From assembly GCA_019634165.1 (NCBI GenBank), contig JAHQVT010000001.1:62001-126000 (forward strand): DNA of 64,000 nucleotides, read 5' to 3'. Shown piece by piece: positions 21,478 to 32,122 of this stretch. A program made the translations under genes and the position numbers. Below the pieces are notes generated by a model that made no database searches, was not told the origin of the DNA, and saw only the letters and a program-made list of their open reading frames with translations. Each line of letters opens with the position of its first letter. Position 1 is the first letter of the stretch. Origin of the DNA: Rhodospirillales bacterium. GTDB taxonomy: Bacteria > Pseudomonadota > Alphaproteobacteria > Rhodospirillales > Thalassospiraceae.

Positions 21478-22746
21478 TTAGTCATCCGCCTTGTGTAGCG
21501 CCTTGCGTATGCGGCGCATGGCAAGCCAGATCGTTGCTAGAACGACCGGCACGGCAATCCCGGTCGCCATCCGGTCATTGATCGGAACACCGGCATCCTT
21601 GATTGCCTTAAACAGATAGCCAAGTAATCCGACCGCATAATAGGTGATGGCGGCAACCGACAATCCTTCGACGGTTTGTTGCAGGCGAAGCTGCAATTTC
21701 ACCCGCCGGTCCATGCTGGCCAACAAATCGCGGTTTTGTGCTTCAAGCAGGATATCGACCCGGGTGCGAAGCAGGTTATTGGCCCGCGCGACACGCTTTG
21801 ACAAAACTTCCAACCGGTCCCCGATATTTTGACAGGTGCGCATGGCGGGCGCCAAACGACGTTCCATAAATTCGGTGATGGTTTGAACCCCTTCGACCCG
21901 TTCTTCGCGAAGTTCGGTCAGACGGGCCTGAACAATGCGGTGATAGGCGCGCGCCGCACTAAACCGATAATTCAAGGATGCTGCCATTTCTTCGGTCTGG
22001 GCGGCAAGATCGGTTAGTTTCGACAGGGTTTCTTCGTCATTGGTGTGGGTTTTACTGGCCATTTCGGCTGTGATGTCCGAAAGACGGGTATCAATTTCTG
22101 AAACCTTGGGTGTTGCACTATGGGCCAGTGGGAACGCCAAAAGCGCCATCATGCGGTAAACTTCAATTTCCTGAAGACGCTGCACAAGACGCCCAGCTTG
22201 GAGTTTTTCCATCCCTTGATCTTTTACCAAGATGCGGCCAAAGCCATCCCCATGCAGGCGAAAATCTGTCCAAACTTGTGCTGATCCTCCCAGAACGCGG
22301 CTGCCTGTCAGGCCATTGTGATCAAACAAGCGGGAAATTTCGTCTTCGCTGCGTTCAGTTTTATCAATCGAAATATGTAAGCCGACCAGCAACTGCCCCG
22401 GTGTATCAGACAACCAATCTTGCGGAACAAGATTAATGATCGGATCTTCGAACGGGTGATCGAATGTTTCCATTCGCTTAAAGACATAGACCGTGAATTC
22501 GGCATGGCGTTCCCAAATCACCGAAAACCCGTCGCAAGAAGCTTCATAATATTTCTGATCAGGCGCCGGTGGGGTCAGGCTATATCGATTACAGAAGGCA
22601 ACAAAATGGTCCCGCACCCCTTTATCAAGCTCTTCACCGGCTTGAAAGGCAATGCAAGAGCATCGCGTTGGACTGATCACGCCGCCAAATGGTCGGGCAT
22701 GGATTTCGTTATGGAGTGCGACGCGCTGGGGATGTTCAACAAACAT
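21478..22746 (-). CDS. DUF3422-family membrane protein
   Basis: 422 residues. The DUF3422 family is widespread in proteobacteria and has no assigned function. Family features: N-terminal HPQRVALHNEIHARPF, a central region with VPQDWLSDTPGQLLVGLHIS, a long helical/coiled stretch (about 215-350, LSKLTDLAAQTEEMAASLNY to RVDILLEAQNRDLLASMDRR) and two C-terminal membrane helices (about 365-385 and 395-412) with a basic tail. This resembles a cytoplasmic domain tethered to the inner membrane by its C-terminus. Start could be the ATG at 22746 or a GTG at 22752; neither has a strong Shine-Dalgarno. Convergent with ctaA, divergent from tldD. Confidence 0.88.
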   Translation of the reverse strand: MFVEHPQRVALHNEIHARPFGGVISPTRCSCIAFQAGEELDKGVRDHFVAFCNRYSLTPPAPDQKYYEASCDGFSVIWERHAEFTVYVFKRMETFDHPFEDPIINLVPQDWLSDTPGQLLVGLHISIDKTERSEDEISRLFDHNGLTGSRVLGGSAQVWTDFRLHGDGFGRILVKDQGMEKLQAGRLVQRLQEIEVYRMMALLAFPLAHSATPKVSEIDTRLSDITAEMASKTHTNDEETLSKLTDLAAQTEEMAASLNYRFSAARAYHRIVQARLTELREERVEGVQTITEFMERRLAPAMRTCQNIGDRLEVLSKRVARANNLLRTRVDILLEAQNRDLLASMDRRVKLQLRLQQTVEGLSVAAITYYAVGLLGYLFKAIKDAGVPINDRMATGIAVPVVLATIWLAMRRIRKALHKADD

Positions 22747-22954
22747 TGCCACGGGCTTTCATAATTGGCCATTGCGGTCTATATAAAACGTTCGGGCCAT
22801 GGTTCCCTGAACCGTGACCCTACAGTACCTGTATAGACGAAAGTCAAAGGTGACAGAAACCCCTGAAAGCATCAGGGAAAATACTGTCATAACTTTCTAC
22901 CTTACGGGGAAAATCATTTGCTTAGGCCGAAAATCCCGGCCCCAAGGAGGTTCC

Positions 22955-24388
22955 ATGACCGATCTTCGCACCACCGACAATCTGTTTTTCGCCAAAGGTG
23001 ATCTTGATCGCGAGCGGCTTGAATCACAGGTCAATGACGCGCTTGGCGCGGCAGAAGACGGGGAACTGTTTCTGGAATACCGCCAATCTGAAAGCCTTGT
23101 TTGGGATGATGGCCGCCTGCGCAGTGCGAATTTTGACACAGCACAGGGATTTGGCCTGCGCGCGGTTGCGGATGAAGCCACCGCCTTTTCGCATTCCAAC
23201 GAACTGTCGAATGACGCAGTTGCCCGTGCGGCTGAAACAGTCAAAGCAGTCGGCTCCGGGCGTTCGGGCAAGGTCGACCTTGGGTCGATTGGCACCAATA
23301 TTTCACTTTATTCCGATATAAATCCGCTGGGTGAAGCCACCTTTGAAGCCAAAGTTGATCTTTTGGCCCAGATTGATGCCTATGCCCGATCCCGCGATCC
23401 GCGTGTCGCACAGGTATCTGCGTCCATTTCCGGCAACTGGCAGGCTGTGCAAATCTGGCGTTCCGGCGGACAGCGGATTGGCGATATTCGCCCGCTTGTG
23501 CGTTTCAATGTATCGGTTGTGGTCAAACAGGGCGACCGTATGGAAACCGGATCACATGGCGAAGGTGGTCGGATTGGCTATGACGGATTCTTTGATGAAA
23601 AGACCTGGAAGAAGGCCGTTGATGAATCTCTCCGTCAGGCGATTGTAAATCTGGATTCCGTCGCCGCACCGGCAGGTGAAATGACTGTGGTGCTTGGACC
23701 GGGCTGGCCAGGTATTCTGTTACACGAAGCCATCGGTCACGGGCTTGAAGGCGATTTCAATCGCAAGGGCACCTCGGCCTTTGCCGGCCTGTTGGGTCAG
23801 CGCATTGCATCACCCGGTGTTACGGTTGTTGATGATGGCACAATCCATGATCGTCGCGGGTCGCTTTCAATTGATGATGAAGGTACACCCACCCAGCAAA
23901 CCGTTTTGATTGAAGACGGCATTCTTAAGGGCTTTATGCAAGACCGCCTGAATGCCCGCCTGACCGGGGTTAAATCCACCGGGAATGGCCGCCGCCAATC
24001 TTATGCCCATGCACCAATGCCGCGTATGACCAACACCTATATGCTGGGTGGCGACAAAGAACCTGAAGAAATCTTGTCCTCTGTCAAAAACGGCATTTAT
24101 GCGGTTAATTTCGGTGGTGGGCAGGTCGATATTACGTCCGGCAAGTTCGTGTTTTCCGCATCAGAAGCCTATTTGATCGAAAATGGCAAACTTGGCGCCC
24201 CGGTCAAGGGTGCAACCCTGATCGGCAATGGTCCAGATAGCCTGACCAAGGTTTCAATGGTCGGCAATGATATGGCGCTTGATAACGGGATTGGCACCTG
24301 TGGCAAAGATGGCCAAGGGGTTCCAGTTGGCGTCGGTCAACCGACCTTGCGCATTGACGGGTTAACCGTAGGCGGCACAGCCGTATAG
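22955..24388 (+). CDS. tldD: metalloprotease TldD
   Basis: Catalytic subunit of the TldD/TldE heterodimeric protease, which trims peptides such as microcin B17 precursor leaders and antitoxins. 477 residues. The zinc motif HEAIGHGLEGD (HExxxH) lies near residue 255 and the modified C-terminal barrel includes GNGRRQSYAHAPMPRMTNTY and NFGGGQVDITSGKFVFSASE. ATG at 22955 stands four bases after an ideal AAGGAGG (22944-22950); the open frame further upstream has no family similarity. The partner gene pmbA/tldE lies 29 kb away, not beside it. Confidence 0.96.
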   Translation: MTDLRTTDNLFFAKGDLDRERLESQVNDALGAAEDGELFLEYRQSESLVWDDGRLRSANFDTAQGFGLRAVADEATAFSHSNELSNDAVARAAETVKAVGSGRSGKVDLGSIGTNISLYSDINPLGEATFEAKVDLLAQIDAYARSRDPRVAQVSASISGNWQAVQIWRSGGQRIGDIRPLVRFNVSVVVKQGDRMETGSHGEGGRIGYDGFFDEKTWKKAVDESLRQAIVNLDSVAAPAGEMTVVLGPGWPGILLHEAIGHGLEGDFNRKGTSAFAGLLGQRIASPGVTVVDDGTIHDRRGSLSIDDEGTPTQQTVLIEDGILKGFMQDRLNARLTGVKSTGNGRRQSYAHAPMPRMTNTYMLGGDKEPEEILSSVKNGIYAVNFGGGQVDITSGKFVFSASEAYLIENGKLGAPVKGATLIGNGPDSLTKVSMVGNDMALDNGIGTCGKDGQGVPVGVGQPTLRIDGLTVGGTAV

Positions 24389-24432: not shown

Positions 24433-24557
24433 TTGACATATCCATACGTATGTAAAACCTATCCGCAAAACGCCGAAGACACCCATCAACTGCATGGCTT
24501 ACATCAATCGGCCAGAGCCCATAATCTGTTTTATAAGATTCAAAACTGATTATGGGC
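24433..24557 (+). promoter_or_regulatory. regulatory region before the barrel/FecR/cyclase operon
   Basis: Two palindromic signals precede the operon. CATACGTATG (24443-24452) follows a TTGACA hexamer (24433-24438). A 10-bp inverted repeat, GCCCATAATC (24517-24526) with GATTATGGGC (24548-24557), has a 21-base loop and no U-run. They could be an operator and a leader hairpin, or the latter a weak tldD terminator. No clear -10 was found. Confidence 0.4.
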
Positions 24558-24631: not shown

Positions 24632-26113
24632 TTGGGGGAAGGCTTGAAAACAAGCAAATGGTGGTACGGTACGACACTAACAGTCGTACTTGGGACACTG
24701 GTGATGGGGATTTCCAGTGTTCAGGCACAGCAAAGTGTGGATGTTCGCACAGACGAAGCACGTCAATTTTCCGAAGATTTTGAACGGCTGGCAGACGTAA
24801 CCGAACGTGCCAACAAATTACTGCAAACCGATGATGGCGGCGGTATCACCTATGCCGATATCCTTTCCAATCCCGATGACATTGTTCTGAATTTCCGCTG
24901 GGCCAAAGCGCAATTATCGCGCGGTGAAGTCCGCGGTGCATCGGCGACTTTGGAACGGATTTTGGTCTTGGACCCTGATCTGGCACCTGTCAGGCTTTAC
25001 TACGCAATCGTTTTGTACCGCCTAGATAGCCTTGATGAAGCCCGTGCGCAGTTTGATCGATTGAGCCAGATGGATGTGTCGCCAGAAGTTTCTGCCGACA
25101 TTGATAAATACATCTCAGCGATTGAACGTCGCCGAAAGCGCCTGAACCAATCTGTGACCCTGACACTGGGTTCACAGATTGACAGCAACCGAAATGTTGC
25201 ACCAAACGACAAACAACAACTTGTCTCGGGCACGCTTACGACCATCACATCAACCACAGATAAGCCGCGCAACGATATCGCCTATATTGGTGCGCTTCGC
25301 TATGATGTCAGCTACGATCTTGGATATCAGGAAGGGCATGAAATATTTGCCAGCGTAACCGGTTACGCCAGTGATCAAGTCCAGCTTGATTCCCTTGATC
25401 TTGGGTCATTTTCAGTCGATGTCGGAAGTCGCATTCGCGGTGGGTACTGGATGTTGACCCCATCCATCAATCAAACCGTCCAATCGCTGAGCAAGGAAAA
25501 GTATCTGACGTCGCGGTCCGGTCAATTGCGCATGGATTGGAACCCGCGCCCGTTCTTTAATCTGAACGGTGCCGTCAGCTATGCCGACGAGCGTTATCAG
25601 AACACCAGCGAGTCCAAGGCCTTGCGGCTGCATTCCGGTCAACGCTATGCCAGCCGTCTGGGTACGAACTACACATGGACGCCCAATAACCGCACCACAT
25701 TCAATGTTACTGCAGGTAAAAAAGAAGCTGCGCGTAATTATTACAGCTATGACAGCTTGAGCGCAGAGTTGATCCATGCTTATCTGTTTGGTGGGGGAAG
25801 TTATATTAGCGGTAGTATCCGCCATGGGATTGATCGTTATCGTGATCCTGACTCATTGGTGACCGGCTCTTCGCCGCAACACCGGATGGATCGCAGCACA
25901 CGGACAAGATTGACCTATGGCGCACCACTTTCGCAAATAATGCCATCAGATTTGTTTGGGGAAAGCACAACGGCAAATCAGATATATGACCTGCTTGCAC
26001 CGATCAACTGGTCGATCACAGGTGAATATCTGAATTCTAAATCGAACATTCCCAACTACGAATATCACAATGCCCGGGCACAGTTTTATCTGACCCGGCG
26101 ATGGGAGTTCTAG
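24632..26113 (+). CDS. outer-membrane barrel with TPR-like N-terminus (Slam/DUF560-like)
   Basis: About 490 residues with three parts: a Sec signal peptide (to about residue 32, cleavage after VQAQ), a soluble TPR-like helical segment (about 60-185, e.g. RWAKAQLSRGEVRGASATLE and LYYAIVLYRLDSLDEARAQF), and a C-terminal barrel of alternating strands ending in RRWEF with the aromatic terminal residue of outer-membrane proteins. This order matches surface lipoprotein assembly modifiers (Slam, DUF560; type XI secretion), which export cargo encoded next door. The cargo candidate is the next gene, whose ATG lies 2 bases after this stop. No ATG is available: start is TTG at 24632 or, closer to GGGGGAAGG, TTG at 24644. 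The Slam assignment is by architecture, not by search. Confidence 0.75.
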   Translation: MGEGLKTSKWWYGTTLTVVLGTLVMGISSVQAQQSVDVRTDEARQFSEDFERLADVTERANKLLQTDDGGGITYADILSNPDDIVLNFRWAKAQLSRGEVRGASATLERILVLDPDLAPVRLYYAIVLYRLDSLDEARAQFDRLSQMDVSPEVSADIDKYISAIERRRKRLNQSVTLTLGSQIDSNRNVAPNDKQQLVSGTLTTITSTTDKPRNDIAYIGALRYDVSYDLGYQEGHEIFASVTGYASDQVQLDSLDLGSFSVDVGSRIRGGYWMLTPSINQTVQSLSKEKYLTSRSGQLRMDWNPRPFFNLNGAVSYADERYQNTSESKALRLHSGQRYASRLGTNYTWTPNNRTTFNVTAGKKEAARNYYSYDSLSAELIHAYLFGGGSYISGSIRHGIDRYRDPDSLVTGSSPQHRMDRSTRTRLTYGAPLSQIMPSDLFGESTTANQIYDLLAPINWSITGEYLNSKSNIPNYEYHNARAQFYLTRRWEF

Positions 26114-26115
26114 TG

Positions 26116-27528
26116 ATGCAGAACGATATAACGACCGCCCGAAAACAGCGAAAAATTAAAGGCCTTTTGCGCAGTTTGATCATCTGCAACGCATTTGCGG
26201 TGCCGGTTATCCATAGCACTTCTGCAACCGCAGAAGTCACGGTCGAAATGGCGGGCGTTTCCGCCGCCGTGACCGGCGAGGTCAAAATGGCCAAGGCAAC
26301 CGGTGAAGTCGGCATTCTGGTTGAAAGCGGCATGCCGGTTTACCTTGGTGATCGCATCACCACGACACCGAATTCAGGCATGCAAATCCTGTTGCTTGAC
26401 GAGACGGTCTTTACCATCGGCCCAAACAGCGACATTGCGATTAACGAGTTCGTTTATGATCCGGCAACCGGCGATGGCCGCATTGTTGCGGATATGGCAC
26501 GCGGAGTGATGCGCTTTGTGACGGGAAAAATCCCGTTGAACAACCCCGAAAGCATGGATATCAGTCTGCCGGTCGGATCGATTGGCATTCGTGGCACCAT
26601 TGGACTGATCCGTTCGGTTTCGGCTGAGCAAGCCAACCAGATCGTCCCCGGTGCATTTGACACCTCCTCACCCGAAAATGCCAATCGACAAGTCTTTATG
26701 GCTGTTAACCAAGGCCCTGGCTTGGCGCGAAATGATACAACATCGCGCCCCGGTGCCTTTGCCGTCACAGATCAAAGCGGCAATAGCCAAAACATCACCG
26801 GCGAGAATTTTGGTGTCTTCGTCAGTGAAAATGTCGTGACAGAACCTGCACGCTTTCCACAAGCTGTTGCCACTTTTGATTTCTCGACCAATCTGGTGCG
26901 TACCGCATTGCGTGGCACCGATGAGAACGGAAGCAGCAGCTTGGGCGGCACACCACAAGCCACAGCGCAACAACCGACCCTGACATCCGGTCAGACCCAA
27001 CAGGCCAATGCGCAAACCGGTGCCACCATGGCAGGAAGTCTTGATGTTGCCTTGGCTCAGATCGGATCGACATCTGCATCTTCCAGTCAGGATGAAGTCA
27101 CATCAATTCTTGGTAACATTGATACAGCAAGTAGCAGTGACGACAGCAGCAATGATCCCTACACCTATGATGCGCTGCGCACAGTAACGAGCGGCACGGC
27201 AACAACCGGCACCTTGAATATCAGTGGCGGTGGTATCTCGTACGATTTCTCCACGACCATTGATTATGCGAACCGTACGATTGGTGTTTCATTTAGCAAC
27301 ATCAATGACGGGACCGGGACGGGTGGCACCGCATCGTTCAGCGGGTATGACTACACTGGAAGTTCAGGTAACGTTGCGTTTGACAATTCCGCGTTCAGCT
27401 ACAACGGCACCTGTAACACGATGAATTGTGATCCATCTGCGACGTTCACATCTGCGACGAATGTCGATTTCAACGTCAAGACCACAAATGTTTCAAATGG
27501 AAACGCGTCATCAGGAACATTGAACTAG
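26116..27528 (+). CDS. exported FecR-domain protein
   Basis: 470 residues. A signal peptide-like N-terminus (basic start, hydrophobic LLRSLIICNAFAVPVI, cleavage near TSATAEV) without a lipobox sends it to the periplasm. Residues about 50-170 form a FecR domain (GILVESGMPVYLGDRITT, LLLDETVFTIGPNSDIAINE, FVTGKIPLNNPESMDISL, GSIGIRGT). A low-complexity Ser/Thr/Gln linker (about 275-350) follows, then a strand-rich Gly/Ser/Asn domain (about 355-470) with one cysteine pair (CNTMNC) that resembles a lipocalin/TbpB-like barrel but ends abruptly at SGTLN. GGGAG inside the end of the previous gene serves as Shine-Dalgarno. Likely cargo or periplasmic partner of the barrel protein, and a likely neighbour in signalling of the cyclase downstream. 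Confidence 0.85.
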   Translation: MQNDITTARKQRKIKGLLRSLIICNAFAVPVIHSTSATAEVTVEMAGVSAAVTGEVKMAKATGEVGILVESGMPVYLGDRITTTPNSGMQILLLDETVFTIGPNSDIAINEFVYDPATGDGRIVADMARGVMRFVTGKIPLNNPESMDISLPVGSIGIRGTIGLIRSVSAEQANQIVPGAFDTSSPENANRQVFMAVNQGPGLARNDTTSRPGAFAVTDQSGNSQNITGENFGVFVSENVVTEPARFPQAVATFDFSTNLVRTALRGTDENGSSSLGGTPQATAQQPTLTSGQTQQANAQTGATMAGSLDVALAQIGSTSASSSQDEVTSILGNIDTASSSDDSSNDPYTYDALRTVTSGTATTGTLNISGGGISYDFSTTIDYANRTIGVSFSNINDGTGTGGTASFSGYDYTGSSGNVAFDNSAFSYNGTCNTMNCDPSATFTSATNVDFNVKTTNVSNGNASSGTLN

Positions 27529-27559
27529 TCCTTTTAATCTCTCGATCAAAAGAACACTC

Positions 27560-29842
27560 ATGCGTCTGAGCAAATCCCGACTGTTGGCGGGTCTGCATTA
27601 TCTGATCCCATTGAGCATCCTGCTGAGCTGCATTTTCTTGCGCTGGCAGGATGTTCCTTTTGTTGATCAGCTACGCCTGAGCGTTTTTGACACCTATCAG
27701 CGCATTTCCCCAAGGCCATACCAAGATGTCGGTGTTCGCATTATCGACATCGACGAAAAAAGTCTTGAAGAAATGGGACAGTGGCCTTGGCCACGAACCC
27801 GACTGGCAGGCCTTATTTATCGATTGCGTTCGGCTGGTGCGCGGGTCGTCGGATTTGATGTGGTTTTTGCCGAACCTGACCGCACATCACCAGCCCGCGT
27901 TGTCAAAGACTGGCCCAAGGGCAATGAAATCGGCGAAATCACCAAGCTTGCTGAAACACTGCCAGACCATGACAACCTGTTTGCCCAGTTTATACGCGGC
28001 ACCGGTCAGATCGTTACCGCCATTCAACTGACCAACAAAAAGGTTGATCGTCCGCCTCGTCAGGTGGGCAATTTCAGCGTATCGGGCGAAGCAGGTCGTA
28101 AGCTTTCCGATTTCATTGCGGTTTTGCCCGGTGCGGCCAAAAATCTTGAAGTTATCGAGAATGCCGCAAGTGGCAATGCCCTTGTCAATGTTGCGCCGGG
28201 ACAGGATGGGATTGTACGGCGCGTGCCGTTGCTTGCGGCATTGGATCATCATCTGCCTGTGATCGGCATGCCGGTTTATCCGACATTATCAATGGAAATG
28301 CTGCGCGTTCTTCAAGACGCGCCGAAAACCATGAATATCCGAATGTCGGGTGCAAGCGGCAGCACTCGATGGACCCAATCCGAAGGCATTGAATCCATCC
28401 GGGTCGGGAATGTGACCATCCCAACCGATCATGCCGGTTATATGTGGGTACATTTTAGCGGCCATCAAAAAGCGCGATATATTTCAGCAGCAGACGTTAT
28501 GAATGACAGTCTGGCCGAGGGCGTTTTACGCGATACATTCGTTTTGATTGGTACCAGTGCTGCGGGGCTTCTTGACCTGCGATCAACCCCACTTGATCCG
28601 GTTCTTCCCGGCGTTGAAGTGCATGCCGAAATGCTTGAACAAATGCTGCTTGAGCATTTCCTGACCCGCCCTTATTGGGCTGCAGAAACAGAGATGCTTG
28701 TTCTGTTGTTGCTTGGAATGTTCTTTGTCATGAGCGTTCCCAAACTAGGTGCCGTTTGGCCCGCCCTGATTGGCGGCACACTTGCATTCGGCGCAGTTGG
28801 CTTTTCTTGGTGGGCCTATGAAACCAAGTTTCTATTGATTGATCCGGCTTATCCGCTGGTCAGCTTGCTTGCGGTCTATCTTGCCACCAGTTCAATTGGT
28901 TTTATGCGCACAGAAGGCGAACGCCGCCAGGTCCGCACCGCTTTTGGCAACTATCTATCCCCGACCTTGGTGAATGAACTCTCACGCCATCCAGAACGGC
29001 TTAAACTTGGCGGTGAAACCCGTGACATGACCTTGATGTTCTGTGACGTGCGTGGATTCACATCAATCTCCGAAGGATTCAAATCCAACCCACAAGGGTT
29101 AACCCGCCTGATCAACCGCCTTCTGACACCACTGACCGAATGCATCCTCGATCGTGAAGGCACGATTGATAAATATATGGGCGACTGCATCATGGCATTT
29201 TGGAATGCCCCACTTGATGTGGCAAACCACGCTCATCATGCCTGTGATAGCGCACTTGCCATGCGAAATGCACTTGATGTGCTTAATACAGAACGGCTGA
29301 TTGAAGCCAAACAGGATGACGTAGCGTTCCTGCCCCTTAATGTCGGGATAGGGATTAATTGCGGTGATTGTCTTGTCGGCAATATGGGATCTGACCAACG
29401 ATTTGATTATTCGGTGCTTGGCGATGCAGTCAATCTGGCCGCCCGACTAGAAGGTCAGTCAAAGAATTACGGTGTTGATATTGTTTTGGGCGAAGAGGTC
29501 GCCAAACGGGTTGAAAACGATTTTGCCATTCTTGAGCTTGATCTGATTGCGGTCAAAGGCAAAAACGAGGCTGTCCACATCTATGCCCTTTTGGGGGATG
29601 GCGCACGTTATGGTTCTGAAGAATTCCAGAACTGCCAAAAGCTGCATAAGGAAATGCTTGCGGCCTATCGTGAAAAGGACTGGGACAGCGCGATTGATCT
29701 TGTCGCGCAATGCCGCGATGCATCGCGCGGTGTTGGGGCGTTGGCAGGCCTGTATGATATGTATCTGGATCGTATTGCGATCTTTAAACAAACACCACCG
29801 CCCGCCGATTGGAACGGCGTGTTTGTTGCGACATCCAAATAG
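27560..29842 (+). CDS. CHASE2-sensor class III adenylate cyclase
   Basis: 760-residue inner-membrane receptor cyclase making cAMP. Order: one N-terminal helix (about 9-26), a periplasmic CHASE2 domain (about 30-370, with VRIIDIDEKSLEEMGQWPWP and the GTSAAGLLDLRSTPLDPVLP end motif), three membrane helices (about 377-447), then a cyclase domain (about 485-650). Catalytic residues are present: metal-binding Asp496 (FCDVRGFTS) and Asp542 (KYMGDCIMAFWN), adenine-selecting Lys538 and Asp616 (FDYSVLGD), and Asn625/Arg629 (NLAARLEG). Hence adenylate rather than guanylate cyclase. Starts 31 bp after the FecR gene and closes the operon. The FecR/CHASE2 proximity suggests the sensor reads a periplasmic state set by the first two proteins; that is inference. 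Confidence 0.94.
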   Translation: MRLSKSRLLAGLHYLIPLSILLSCIFLRWQDVPFVDQLRLSVFDTYQRISPRPYQDVGVRIIDIDEKSLEEMGQWPWPRTRLAGLIYRLRSAGARVVGFDVVFAEPDRTSPARVVKDWPKGNEIGEITKLAETLPDHDNLFAQFIRGTGQIVTAIQLTNKKVDRPPRQVGNFSVSGEAGRKLSDFIAVLPGAAKNLEVIENAASGNALVNVAPGQDGIVRRVPLLAALDHHLPVIGMPVYPTLSMEMLRVLQDAPKTMNIRMSGASGSTRWTQSEGIESIRVGNVTIPTDHAGYMWVHFSGHQKARYISAADVMNDSLAEGVLRDTFVLIGTSAAGLLDLRSTPLDPVLPGVEVHAEMLEQMLLEHFLTRPYWAAETEMLVLLLLGMFFVMSVPKLGAVWPALIGGTLAFGAVGFSWWAYETKFLLIDPAYPLVSLLAVYLATSSIGFMRTEGERRQVRTAFGNYLSPTLVNELSRHPERLKLGGETRDMTLMFCDVRGFTSISEGFKSNPQGLTRLINRLLTPLTECILDREGTIDKYMGDCIMAFWNAPLDVANHAHHACDSALAMRNALDVLNTERLIEAKQDDVAFLPLNVGIGINCGDCLVGNMGSDQRFDYSVLGDAVNLAARLEGQSKNYGVDIVLGEEVAKRVENDFAILELDLIAVKGKNEAVHIYALLGDGARYGSEEFQNCQKLHKEMLAAYREKDWDSAIDLVAQCRDASRGVGALAGLYDMYLDRIAIFKQTPPPADWNGVFVATSK

Positions 29843-29956: not shown

Positions 29957-30979
29957 ATGAATTTTTCATCCGATAATGTTTCGCCAATCTGCCCAGAAAT
30001 CCTGAACGCCATTGCCGCAGAAAGTGATCACGCTGCCCTGCCCTATGGCGCGGATAACCAAAGCCAGCAACTTGATGCTGCCTTTTCCAAACTGTTTGAA
30101 ACCGATGTTTGCGTTGTCCCAGTCGCCACCGGGACTGCGGCCAATCTGATTGGCTTATCGGGGTTGGTTTCACCCTTTGGTGGGGTCGTTTGCCATCACC
30201 ACGCCCACATCAATATGACGGAATCAACTGGGGTCGCGTTTTATGGCGGTGGTGCGAAACTTCTTGGGATTGATGGGCCATCTGCCAAGATTGACGCCCA
30301 CACCTTGGACGCCTTTCTGCGCGCACACAGCCCCAATGGCATGCATTCGGTCGATCCGGAATGTGTTGCGATAACCCAAAGCACGGAATTTGGCACCGTC
30401 TATGACACCCACGAAATTAACGCGATCGGGTCGGTTTGTAAAAATCACGACCTGCGTCTGTTCATGGATGGGGCGCGTTTTGCCAATGCGGTTGCCGCCC
30501 TTAATTGCCATCCGGCCGACATCACCTGGAAAGTAGGTGTTGATGTTTTAAGTTTCGGGGCCACCAAGAACGGTGCGCTGGCCGTGGATGCCATTGTTTT
30601 ATTTGACCGTGAATTACGCCGTCATACAGAAAAAAGCCGTAAGCGCGGTGGGCACCTGTTTTCCAAACACCGTTATCTTGCCGCCCAACTTCTAGCTTAC
30701 CTTAAAGATGATCTTTGGCTGCGTAATGCGCGGCACGCCAATGAAGCTGCCGTCGCTCTTCAACACAGCCTTGAAAGCATCGGGGCCAAGGCGGCCTTCA
30801 CGCCACAAGGGAACGAGCTGTTTATCCACATGACAGACGAACTTGCCCAAAGCTTACGCGATGCTGGCATTGTGTTTCGTCCCTGGGCCTCGATCGGGCC
30901 GGATGCCTATCGGTTTGTTTGCACATGGAACAGCCCGATTGACCTGATCCGAAATATCCCAAAATCAATTCGCACCTAA
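29957..30979 (+). CDS. threonine aldolase-family PLP enzyme, copy 1
   Basis: 340-residue fold-type I PLP enzyme of the low-specificity L-threonine aldolase/beta-eliminating lyase family, which splits threonine or other beta-hydroxy amino acids to glycine and an aldehyde. N-terminal NFSSDNVSPICPEIL, the PLP phosphate region VPVATGTAANLIGLSGL, DLRLFMDGARFANAV (Asp pairing with the PLP ring) and the Schiff-base lysine in VLSFGATKNGALAVD are intact. It is followed 121 bp later by a clear paralogue in the same direction. The 113-bp gap after the cyclase gene suggests its own transcript. Confidence 0.93.
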   Translation: MNFSSDNVSPICPEILNAIAAESDHAALPYGADNQSQQLDAAFSKLFETDVCVVPVATGTAANLIGLSGLVSPFGGVVCHHHAHINMTESTGVAFYGGGAKLLGIDGPSAKIDAHTLDAFLRAHSPNGMHSVDPECVAITQSTEFGTVYDTHEINAIGSVCKNHDLRLFMDGARFANAVAALNCHPADITWKVGVDVLSFGATKNGALAVDAIVLFDRELRRHTEKSRKRGGHLFSKHRYLAAQLLAYLKDDLWLRNARHANEAAVALQHSLESIGAKAAFTPQGNELFIHMTDELAQSLRDAGIVFRPWASIGPDAYRFVCTWNSPIDLIRNIPKSIRT

Positions 30980-31102
30980 ATCAGTTGCGCAAGCCCTTTG
31001 CCTTGATCAAGGATTGCGTGTGATAACGTTCAATTCATGCCAAAACGCCATAGCATTTCGCATCAATTGCTATGCGCCACCAATTTACTCGCGAGATAGA
31101 TG

Positions 31103-32122
31103 ATGAATTTTGCCTCTGACAATGTATCGCCCTTTTGCCCGGAAGTTCTTGAAGCGCTGAGCCATGAAGCTGCCAGCAATGCGCCTGCTTATGGCAGTGA
31201 TGATGTCAGTCAAAAGCTTGATGCGGCCTTTTCCGATCTGTTTGAAACCGATGTTGCCGTCATTCCGGTCGCCACAGGCACAGCGGCAAACTGCATTAGT
31301 CTTTCCGCCCTTGTATCGCCCTATGGCGGCGTGATCTGCCATCACGAAGCCCATATCAACGAAGATGAAAGCACAGGCGTTGCCTTCTTTACCGGTGGGG
31401 CAAAACTGTTGCCGATGGACGGCCCAACCGCCAAGCTTGAAGCCGACAGTCTTGATCGCTTCATTGCCAGTCAGGTAGACCGCGGTGTCCATTCCGTCGC
31501 CCCGGAATGTGTTGCCATTACCCAGGCCACTGAACTTGGAACGGTTTACACCGCAGCGGAGGTCCAAGCGATTGGTGCTATCTGCAAGAAGCATGATCTG
31601 CGTCTGTTCATGGATGGCGCCCGTTTCGCCAATGCGGTTGCCAATCTGGGGTGCAGCCCGGCCGATATCACGTGGAAAGCAGGTGTAGATGCCGTCAGTT
31701 TTGGTGCGACCAAAAACGGTGCCATGGCGGTTGACGCGATTGTCCTGTTTGATACCACACTGAAATCCCGTATCGAGCAAGCCCGCAAACGCAGCGGCCA
31801 TTTACATTCCAAACATCGCTACCTTGCGACCCAGTTACTCGCCTATGTCAAAAATGACGTATGGCTTAAAAATGCAGGCCACGCCAATCAGGCAGCAACC
31901 CTCCTTGGCGAGGTTCTTTGCACGCATGGCGCTTCTCTTGCGCACCCATCTGATGGCAATGAATTGTTTGTAAAGCTGTCTTCTGATCTCGCAGGCAGAT
32001 TGCGCGATGCCGGTGTCATGTTCCATGCATGGCCGTCGCTTGGCGCGGATGTTTATCGATTTGTTGCAGCATGGAATACGGATATCGGGCAAATCACCGA
32101 TATAAATTCTACCTTGGGGTAG
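31103..32122 (+). CDS. threonine aldolase-family PLP enzyme, copy 2
   Basis: 339 residues, paralogue of the preceding gene: more than half of positions agree by eye along the whole length, with all PLP-site motifs kept (VPVATGTAANCISLSALV-like, DLRLFMDGARFANAV, VSFGATKNGAMAVD). Substrate-side segments differ (e.g. CHHEAHINEDESTGVAFFTG against CHHHAHINMTESTGVAFYGG), so the copies may have different amino acid or stereo preference. Start is the second ATG of an ATGATG pair (31103), matching copy 1; the first is at 31100. The DNA of the two copies has drifted, so the duplication is not recent. Confidence 0.93.
   Translation: MNFASDNVSPFCPEVLEALSHEAASNAPAYGSDDVSQKLDAAFSDLFETDVAVIPVATGTAANCISLSALVSPYGGVICHHEAHINEDESTGVAFFTGGAKLLPMDGPTAKLEADSLDRFIASQVDRGVHSVAPECVAITQATELGTVYTAAEVQAIGAICKKHDLRLFMDGARFANAVANLGCSPADITWKAGVDAVSFGATKNGAMAVDAIVLFDTTLKSRIEQARKRSGHLHSKHRYLATQLLAYVKNDVWLKNAGHANQAATLLGEVLCTHGASLAHPSDGNELFVKLSSDLAGRLRDAGVMFHAWPSLGADVYRFVAAWNTDIGQITDINSTLG

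What the first reader, a model, noticed from the sequence alone, without database searches (positions are those of the whole stretch)
24632..29842. Operon joining an outer-membrane barrel, an exported FecR protein and a CHASE2 adenylate cyclase
Seen: three genes with 2 and 31 bp gaps encode (1) a signal peptide, TPR-like segment and barrel ending in an aromatic residue, like Slam/DUF560 (type XI) exporters; (2) a FecR-domain protein with a signal peptide, Ser/Thr/Gln linker and strand-rich tail; (3) an intact class III cyclase with a large CHASE2 sensor. Known: Slam exporters handle cargo encoded next to them; FecR domains relay outer-membrane signals to partners in iron uptake; CHASE2 is a periplasmic sensor. 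Inference: cargo status or ligand at the surface is read in the periplasm by FecR and passed to cAMP, giving an outer-membrane-to-cAMP pathway without a TonB receptor or ECF sigma factor.
Basis: partly seen in the sequence, partly recalled or inferred. Interest (0 to 1): 0.78.

Follow-up and report, generated by a model that had tools for sequence, protein, structure and literature searches.

The report
Swappable surface cargo wired to cAMP
In a Thalassospira bacterium, three adjoining genes encode a relative of the Slam outer-membrane exporters, a FecR protein whose C-terminal domain has apparently been swapped between strains and is predicted to be that exporter's cargo, and an enzyme predicted to make cAMP; together they would likely pass a signal from the cell surface to the cell interior.

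Summary
The three-gene operon is real (24632-29842; gaps 2 and 31 bp) and is no chance neighbourhood. Gene 1 models as periplasmic TPR helices plus a 14-stranded barrel, the Slam/DUF560 layout; its own DUF560 scores are below cut-off, but its family grades into clear Slam-type exporters. Of 69 exporter-family loci examined across Alphaproteobacteria, 43 contain a FecR gene, 23 of them with CHASE2 too. Its modelled fold matches fHbp, NHBA, hemophilin, TbpB, LbpB and HpuA barrels, and six equivalent FecR proteins match that fold by sequence (25 of 25 PDB hits). Within Thalassospira the tail behaves as an exchangeable cassette: operons otherwise 97-100% identical (linker 84%) carry tails 43% identical. 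Best reading: the tail is exported through gene 1, the FecR module stays in the periplasm (it resembles the retention domain of RTX adhesins) and tells the CHASE2 cyclase. An outer-membrane-to-cAMP route is already published (NsrA-CyaK); this is a split, secretion-coupled version. Export, topology and cAMP output are untested, and 31 of 47 exporter-linked FecR proteins show no recognised tail barrel.

The parts
24632..26113 (+). Gene 1: Slam/DUF560-like predicted outer-membrane protein, 489-493 aa (possible start TTG 24644)
24737..25135 (+). Gene 1 periplasmic TPR helices (aa 36-168)
   Evidence: model m6296bef2ed86; TPR_19
25136..26110 (+). Gene 1 barrel, 14 strands in the model (aa 169-493), ends in Phe
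   Evidence: strand count is my reading of the DSSP line
26116..27528 (+). Gene 2: FecR-domain protein with signal-like N-terminus, 470 aa (ORF open from 26101)
26236..26892 (+). Gene 2 FecR module (about aa 46-264 counted from 26101; Pfam FecR 84-168)
26890..27150 (+). Gene 2 low-confidence Ser/Thr/Gln-rich linker (aa 264-350, pLDDT under 50)
27151..27525 (+). Gene 2 strain-variable C-terminal domain, 8 strands by my count, Slam-cargo fold (aa 351-475, pLDDT 83-97)
   Evidence: fold; exchange
27560..29842 (+). Gene 3: CHASE2 class III nucleotide cyclase, 760 aa
27620..28720 (+). Gene 3 CHASE2 sensor domain (aa 21-387)
   Evidence: PF05226, 206.6 bits
29021..29590 (+). Gene 3 cyclase domain (aa 488-677)
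   Evidence: PF00211, 74.0 bits, profile positions 7-181 of 183

Best explanation
Gene 1 is predicted to be a Slam-family-like (type 11 secretion) outer-membrane barrel that likely exports the C-terminal barrel of the FecR protein encoded next to it, while the FecR module likely stays in the periplasm and would report to the CHASE2 domain of the predicted adenylate cyclase encoded third. Step 1 (inferred): Sec moves the products of genes 1 and 2 to the periplasm. Step 2 (inferred from fold, neighbourhood and family): gene 1 recognises the 8-stranded tail and passes it to the surface. Step 3 (inferred): the roughly 90-residue linker lies in or near the barrel, and the FecR module, whose modelled fold resembles both the PupR signalling domain and the anchoring domain of an RTX-type antifreeze adhesin, is held back below the outer membrane. 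Step 4 (inferred): the retained FecR module touches CHASE2, so that loading, ligand binding or release of the surface tail changes cAMP. Shown here by sequence: the operon and its conservation, the FecR, CHASE2 and cyclase domains, and tails that vary independently of the rest of the operon. Shown by model only: the TPR-barrel of gene 1 and the cargo-type fold of the tail.
Confidence: 0.5

Rival explanations
1. Split NsrA: gene 1 is the surface receptor, not an exporter; FecR is a periplasmic relay that docks on its TPR domain; the tail is a periplasmic or barrel-plugging domain.
For: The ORF before cyaK (taken to be NsrA) has FecR and TPR in one chain, and the authors place the NsrA barrel at residues 600-1200; several exporter-linked FecR proteins have no recognised tail barrel, as expected if gene 1 alone senses.
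Against: The tail fold and, in other genera, the tail sequence are those of Slam-type cargo; the tail varies freely while gene 1 does not, which points to the tail as the variable surface part.
Confidence: 0.25
2. Export-status gauge: the whole FecR protein is exported; only material waiting in the periplasm touches CHASE2, so cAMP reports exporter occupancy or failure, not a ligand.
For: Same anatomy; exporter and FecR are adjacent with CHASE2 optional; predicted T11SS cargo includes soluble secreted proteins (PMC12282271 section 15).
Against: The FecR module models like signalling and anchoring domains, which suggests that it stays; the long linker would have no clear role.
Confidence: 0.13
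3. Regulatory neighbours only: the exporter and its FecR cargo make a surface protein, and the cyclase sits in the operon for co-expression without contact.
For: 20 of 43 exporter-FecR loci lack CHASE2, and the cyclase is on the opposite strand in 6 of 23 trios (read).
Against: CHASE2 goes with FecR whatever the delivery route: exporter type, T1SS RTX type, fused NsrA type; FecR is about 17 times over expectation near CHASE2.
Confidence: 0.12

Closest known systems
NsrA-CyaK of Sinorhizobium meliloti (outer-membrane receptor with a CHASE2 cyclase)
   Same: FecR, TPR and a published C-terminal outer-membrane barrel next to a CHASE2 cyclase gene; published outer-membrane-to-cAMP signalling (PMC7529298 passages; FecR 57.2 bits and TPR). 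The record carries no annotation there; that the 1219-aa ORF directly before cyaK is NsrA rests on position and size.
   Different: NsrA carries all parts in one chain; here the exporter-like barrel and the FecR protein are separate, and the FecR protein has a cargo-type, strain-variable tail.
Type 11 secretion systems (Slam/DUF560 outer-membrane proteins and TbpB/fHbp/hemophilin-type cargo)
   Same: TPR plus 14-strand barrel; adjacent gene whose product ends in a predicted 8-stranded barrel of the cargo fold.
   Different: The cargo carries a FecR module at its N-terminus, and the unit contains a cyclase. FecR and cyclase do not occur in the main texts of PMC12282271 and PMC8406197 (term searches).
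CHASE2 adenylate cyclase cluster of Campylobacterota
   Different: Includes a phosphodiesterase; no Slam-type exporter or cargo barrel is reported in the section read.
FecR-LysM plus CHASE2 histidine kinase (BiofilmReg operon)
   Same: FecR protein encoded beside a CHASE2 sensor (PMC5192318 passages).
   Different: Histidine kinase output; LysM on the FecR protein in most cases; no exporter mentioned in the passages seen.
LapA-type RTX adhesins with a periplasmic retention module
   Same: An N-terminal domain kept in the periplasm below a surface protein (PMC6890996 passages); FecR fold match to 5ix9; FecR-RTX genes beside CHASE2 cyclases, with T1SS genes, in L041 and L058.
   Different: Secreted by type 1 secretion and controlled through c-di-GMP and LapG proteolysis; gene 2 has no retention_LapA match of its own.

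Membership tests
T11SS outer-membrane protein (Slam/DUF560) | Periplasmic TPR domain followed by a 14-stranded barrel | tested here: met
   Predicted model, pLDDT 87.6; layout as in PMC5449769 and PMC8406197 passages
T11SS outer-membrane protein (Slam/DUF560) | Sequence homology to SlipAM (PF04575) and TPR_Slam (PF24575) | tested here: inconclusive
   Gene 1: TPR_Slam 22.6 bits, below 35.2; no SlipAM hit. Alignment members: SlipAM in 18 of 59, TPR_Slam in 47 of 59 at E up to 0.1; three distant relatives found with its profile score 77-119 bits for SlipAM. So described as Slam-family-like, not filed as a formal member
T11SS outer-membrane protein (Slam/DUF560) | Exports a partner protein | not testable with these tools
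   needs an export assay
T11SS cargo | C-terminal 8-stranded TbpB/fHbp-type barrel | tested here: met
   Fold of the predicted model; by sequence only in related loci, not for the window's own tail
T11SS cargo | Encoded next to a T11SS outer-membrane protein | tested here: met
   2-bp gap to gene 1; FecR within 160 bp of the exporter in 46 of 47 related loci
T11SS cargo | Exporter-dependent surface display or release | not testable with these tools
   needs an experiment
FecR anti-sigma factor of cell-surface signalling | FecR domain | tested here: met
   PF04773 29.0 bits; fold match to PupR
FecR anti-sigma factor of cell-surface signalling | Cytoplasmic anti-sigma N-terminus and a transmembrane helix before FecR | tested here: not met
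   Only a signal-like stretch of about 46 residues precedes the FecR module, with no other Pfam match at E up to 1; so not an anti-sigma factor
NsrA-type receptor with CHASE2 cyclase | FecR, TPR and outer-membrane barrel next to a CHASE2 cyclase | tested here: met
NsrA-type receptor with CHASE2 cyclase | FecR and barrel in one polypeptide | tested here: not met
   separate genes 1 and 2; so works like NsrA at most, and is not an NsrA
LapA-type retention module | Match to NCBIfam retention_LapA | tested here: inconclusive
CHASE2 class III cyclase | CHASE2 domain plus class III catalytic domain | tested here: met
   206.6 and 74.0 bits; activity and product not tested

The most novel reading that the evidence does not exclude
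A new kind of outer-membrane receptor: a type 11 cargo protein held half-exported, its exchangeable surface barrel outside and its FecR module acting as periplasmic stop and relay, wired to a CHASE2 adenylate cyclase. The same FecR stop-and-relay module would serve type 1-secreted RTX adhesins and fused NsrA receptors, so FecR plus CHASE2 would be a general device by which bacteria sense the state of their own surface proteins, and strains of Thalassospira would change what they sense by swapping the tail cassette.
Probability: 0.33. Interest if true: 0.87.

Novelty: new variant of a known kind. Interest (0 to 1): 0.7.

Why it matters
How cues at the outer surface reach cyclases in the inner membrane is known for very few systems. 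If right, this joins a protein-export machine to second-messenger signalling, gives T11SS exporters a role in sensing as well as display, suggests one periplasmic module (FecR) shared by three delivery routes, and offers a naturally exchanged surface domain whose ligand or antagonist can be hunted by comparing strains that are otherwise nearly identical in the operon.

Tried and rejected
Plain porin for gene 1: rejected as the whole answer. The best solved matches are the porins CymA and OmpG (14 strands each by recollection), but the TPR domain, the family link to SlipAM and the FecR neighbour argue for the Slam-like class. No solved Slam chain appeared among the listed rows, which excludes nothing.

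FecR anti-sigma factor with TonB receptor and ECF sigma: gene 2 lacks the cytoplasmic part. The wider neighbourhood was not scanned by profile except 21478-24388.

Classical cargo lipoprotein: no lipobox Cys seen by eye in the N-terminus, so soluble cargo if cargo at all; no signal-peptide predictor was at hand.

Cargo-profile contrast: 14 of 47 exporter-linked against 1 of 23 other FecR ORFs; that one (L126) is the same gene as L206, whose exporter lay just outside the first stretch, so 0 of 22 are independent. Fisher p 0.003, but the profile was seeded with six such proteins and iterated, so this is partly circular. The Pfam version is weaker: TbpB_B_D or FHBP_C, below cut-off, in 4 of 21 exporter-type proteins and 0 of 10 others. 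The cargo profile also hit nine non-FecR ORFs, mostly beside SlipAM-like relatives (L190, L194, L197, L198).

Rows dropped: of the 101 best CHASE2 matches other than the window, I fetched 100 and left out one with an in-frame stop. Among the 100 the script found exporter plus FecR in 17; one (L078) is an overlapping-frame artefact on inspection, and L126 should be added.

Tail outside FecR proteins: a search with the tail alone found 15 proteins, all already listed as relatives of gene 2.

cAMP-receptor site in about 260 bases upstream of gene 1: none with fewer than 3 mismatches in the window.

The A2 profile against the PDB gave nothing useful. Passages of PMC8277102 and PMC9090332 were looked at and not used.

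Full report
What is there. Three same-strand genes at 24632-29842 with gaps of 2 and 31 bp. Gene 1 (489-493 aa) has a TPR match over cut-off and a TPR_Slam match below cut-off; gene 2 has a FecR domain; gene 3 has CHASE2 and a class III cyclase domain, both far above cut-off. The genome has one CHASE2 match, nine PF00211 matches and nine FecR matches, these genes included. The genus is taken as Thalassospira from its close named relatives.

The tail is exchanged. Among the first 33 rows of alignment A2, 72 pairs are at least 93% identical in FecR; 57 of these have tails only 36-51% identical, 15 have 58-100%. In 19 Thalassospira loci (171 pairs, not independent), tail identity has no correlation with FecR, mid region, linker, TPR, barrel, CHASE2 or cyclase identity (Spearman -0.06 to 0.06), while barrel against FecR gives 0.77. 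L131 and L148 are 97-100% identical in FecR, the adjoining mid region, TPR, barrel, CHASE2 and cyclase (linker 84%), with tails 43% identical; L135 and L144 share an 86% identical tail while the other parts are 73-87% identical and the linker 41%. At the DNA level the L131/L148 difference is concentrated from about 450 bases before to about 100 after the gene 2 stop codon. An exposed, diversifying domain is the simplest reading (inference).

How far the unit reaches. The gene 1 profile matches 62 of 289 alphaproteobacterial genomes. I examined 69 of the 71 listed rows (the window itself and a second row for one gene left out): 23 loci have FecR and CHASE2, 20 FecR only, 2 CHASE2 only, 24 neither. 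At 200 bits or more, 42 of 55 have FecR and 25 CHASE2; below that, 1 and 0 of 14. Reading, the order exporter-FecR-cyclase on one strand holds in 9 of 23 trios, cyclase-exporter-FecR in 7, FecR-exporter-cyclase in 1, and the cyclase is on the other strand in 6; in 22 of 23 the CHASE2 ORF also matches my cyclase profile (not L084). Paracoccus aminophilus and a Shinella plasmid show the window's order. From the other side, 100 of the best 101 CHASE2 matches other than the window contain FecR in 37 loci, against 2.2 expected at the own-genome density. Of 19 exporter-linked or nearly so FecR ORFs checked with Pfam, 16 pass the FecR cut-off, and all 10 of the comparison set do.

Against. 31 of 47 exporter-linked FecR ORFs match neither tail profile, and some end shortly after FecR; CHASE2 is optional; the tail call for the window rests on a predicted fold; a FecR protein encoded near cyaD1 in S. 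meliloti was not required for signal perception (PMC5498481 passages); nothing was measured.

Literature. CHASE2 with FecR: three papers, of which PMC9239204 (section 9) reports a CHASE2 cyclase, FecR outer-membrane protein and TPR protein cluster in Campylobacterota, PMC5192318 (passages) a FecR-LysM protein with a CHASE2 kinase, and PMC5498481 (passages) a FecR protein, SMc02177, among Clr targets. 'Type 11 secretion' with 'adenylate cyclase': none. FecR with 'RTX adhesin': none. The NsrA 2018 paper is not held, so what it says of FecR is unknown to me. A T11SS cargo with a FecR module wired to a cyclase was not found in these searches, which cover only the held open-licence library.

Noticed in passing
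window 24517-24557: Inverted repeat (16-nt arms, 94% complementary, 9 nt apart) upstream of gene 1; 8 of 20 other Thalassospira loci have an 8-nt inverted repeat (GACCATAA) at about the same place. Possible operator or hairpin; no good cAMP-receptor site in the window.
   Followed up: partly
L041 3297-12045, L058 3319-12033, L038 374-9083: CHASE2 cyclase genes inside type 1 secretion clusters with an N-terminally FecR-bearing RTX protein; nine more of the 100 CHASE2 loci have T1SS parts but no FecR in the fetched stretch.
   Followed up: partly
L027 9089-15919, L025 1-5773: In Shinella and Ensifer the unit or its remnants lie beside NHLP bacteriocin-export genes and a cyclic-nucleotide-binding protein (record annotation).
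   Followed up: no
L205 9607-10449: An ORF between the FecR gene and the cyclase looks like a Crp/Fnr-type regulator by eye, which would be a local cAMP effector (no profile run).
   Followed up: no
L151 4626-6884 and L155 8914-11262: Signs of tandem FecR genes (a tail-bearing ORF directly before another FecR gene) and of tandem tail domains in one protein.
   Followed up: partly
window 29957-30979 and 31100-32122: Two adjacent, look-alike 340-aa genes (threonine-aldolase-like by recollection only) directly downstream of the operon.
   Followed up: no
L177, L180, L184, L186: Exporter-family genes followed by short FecR ORFs (288-316 aa) without a recognised barrel and without CHASE2 in the fetched stretch: perhaps a different use of the same pair.
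   Followed up: partly
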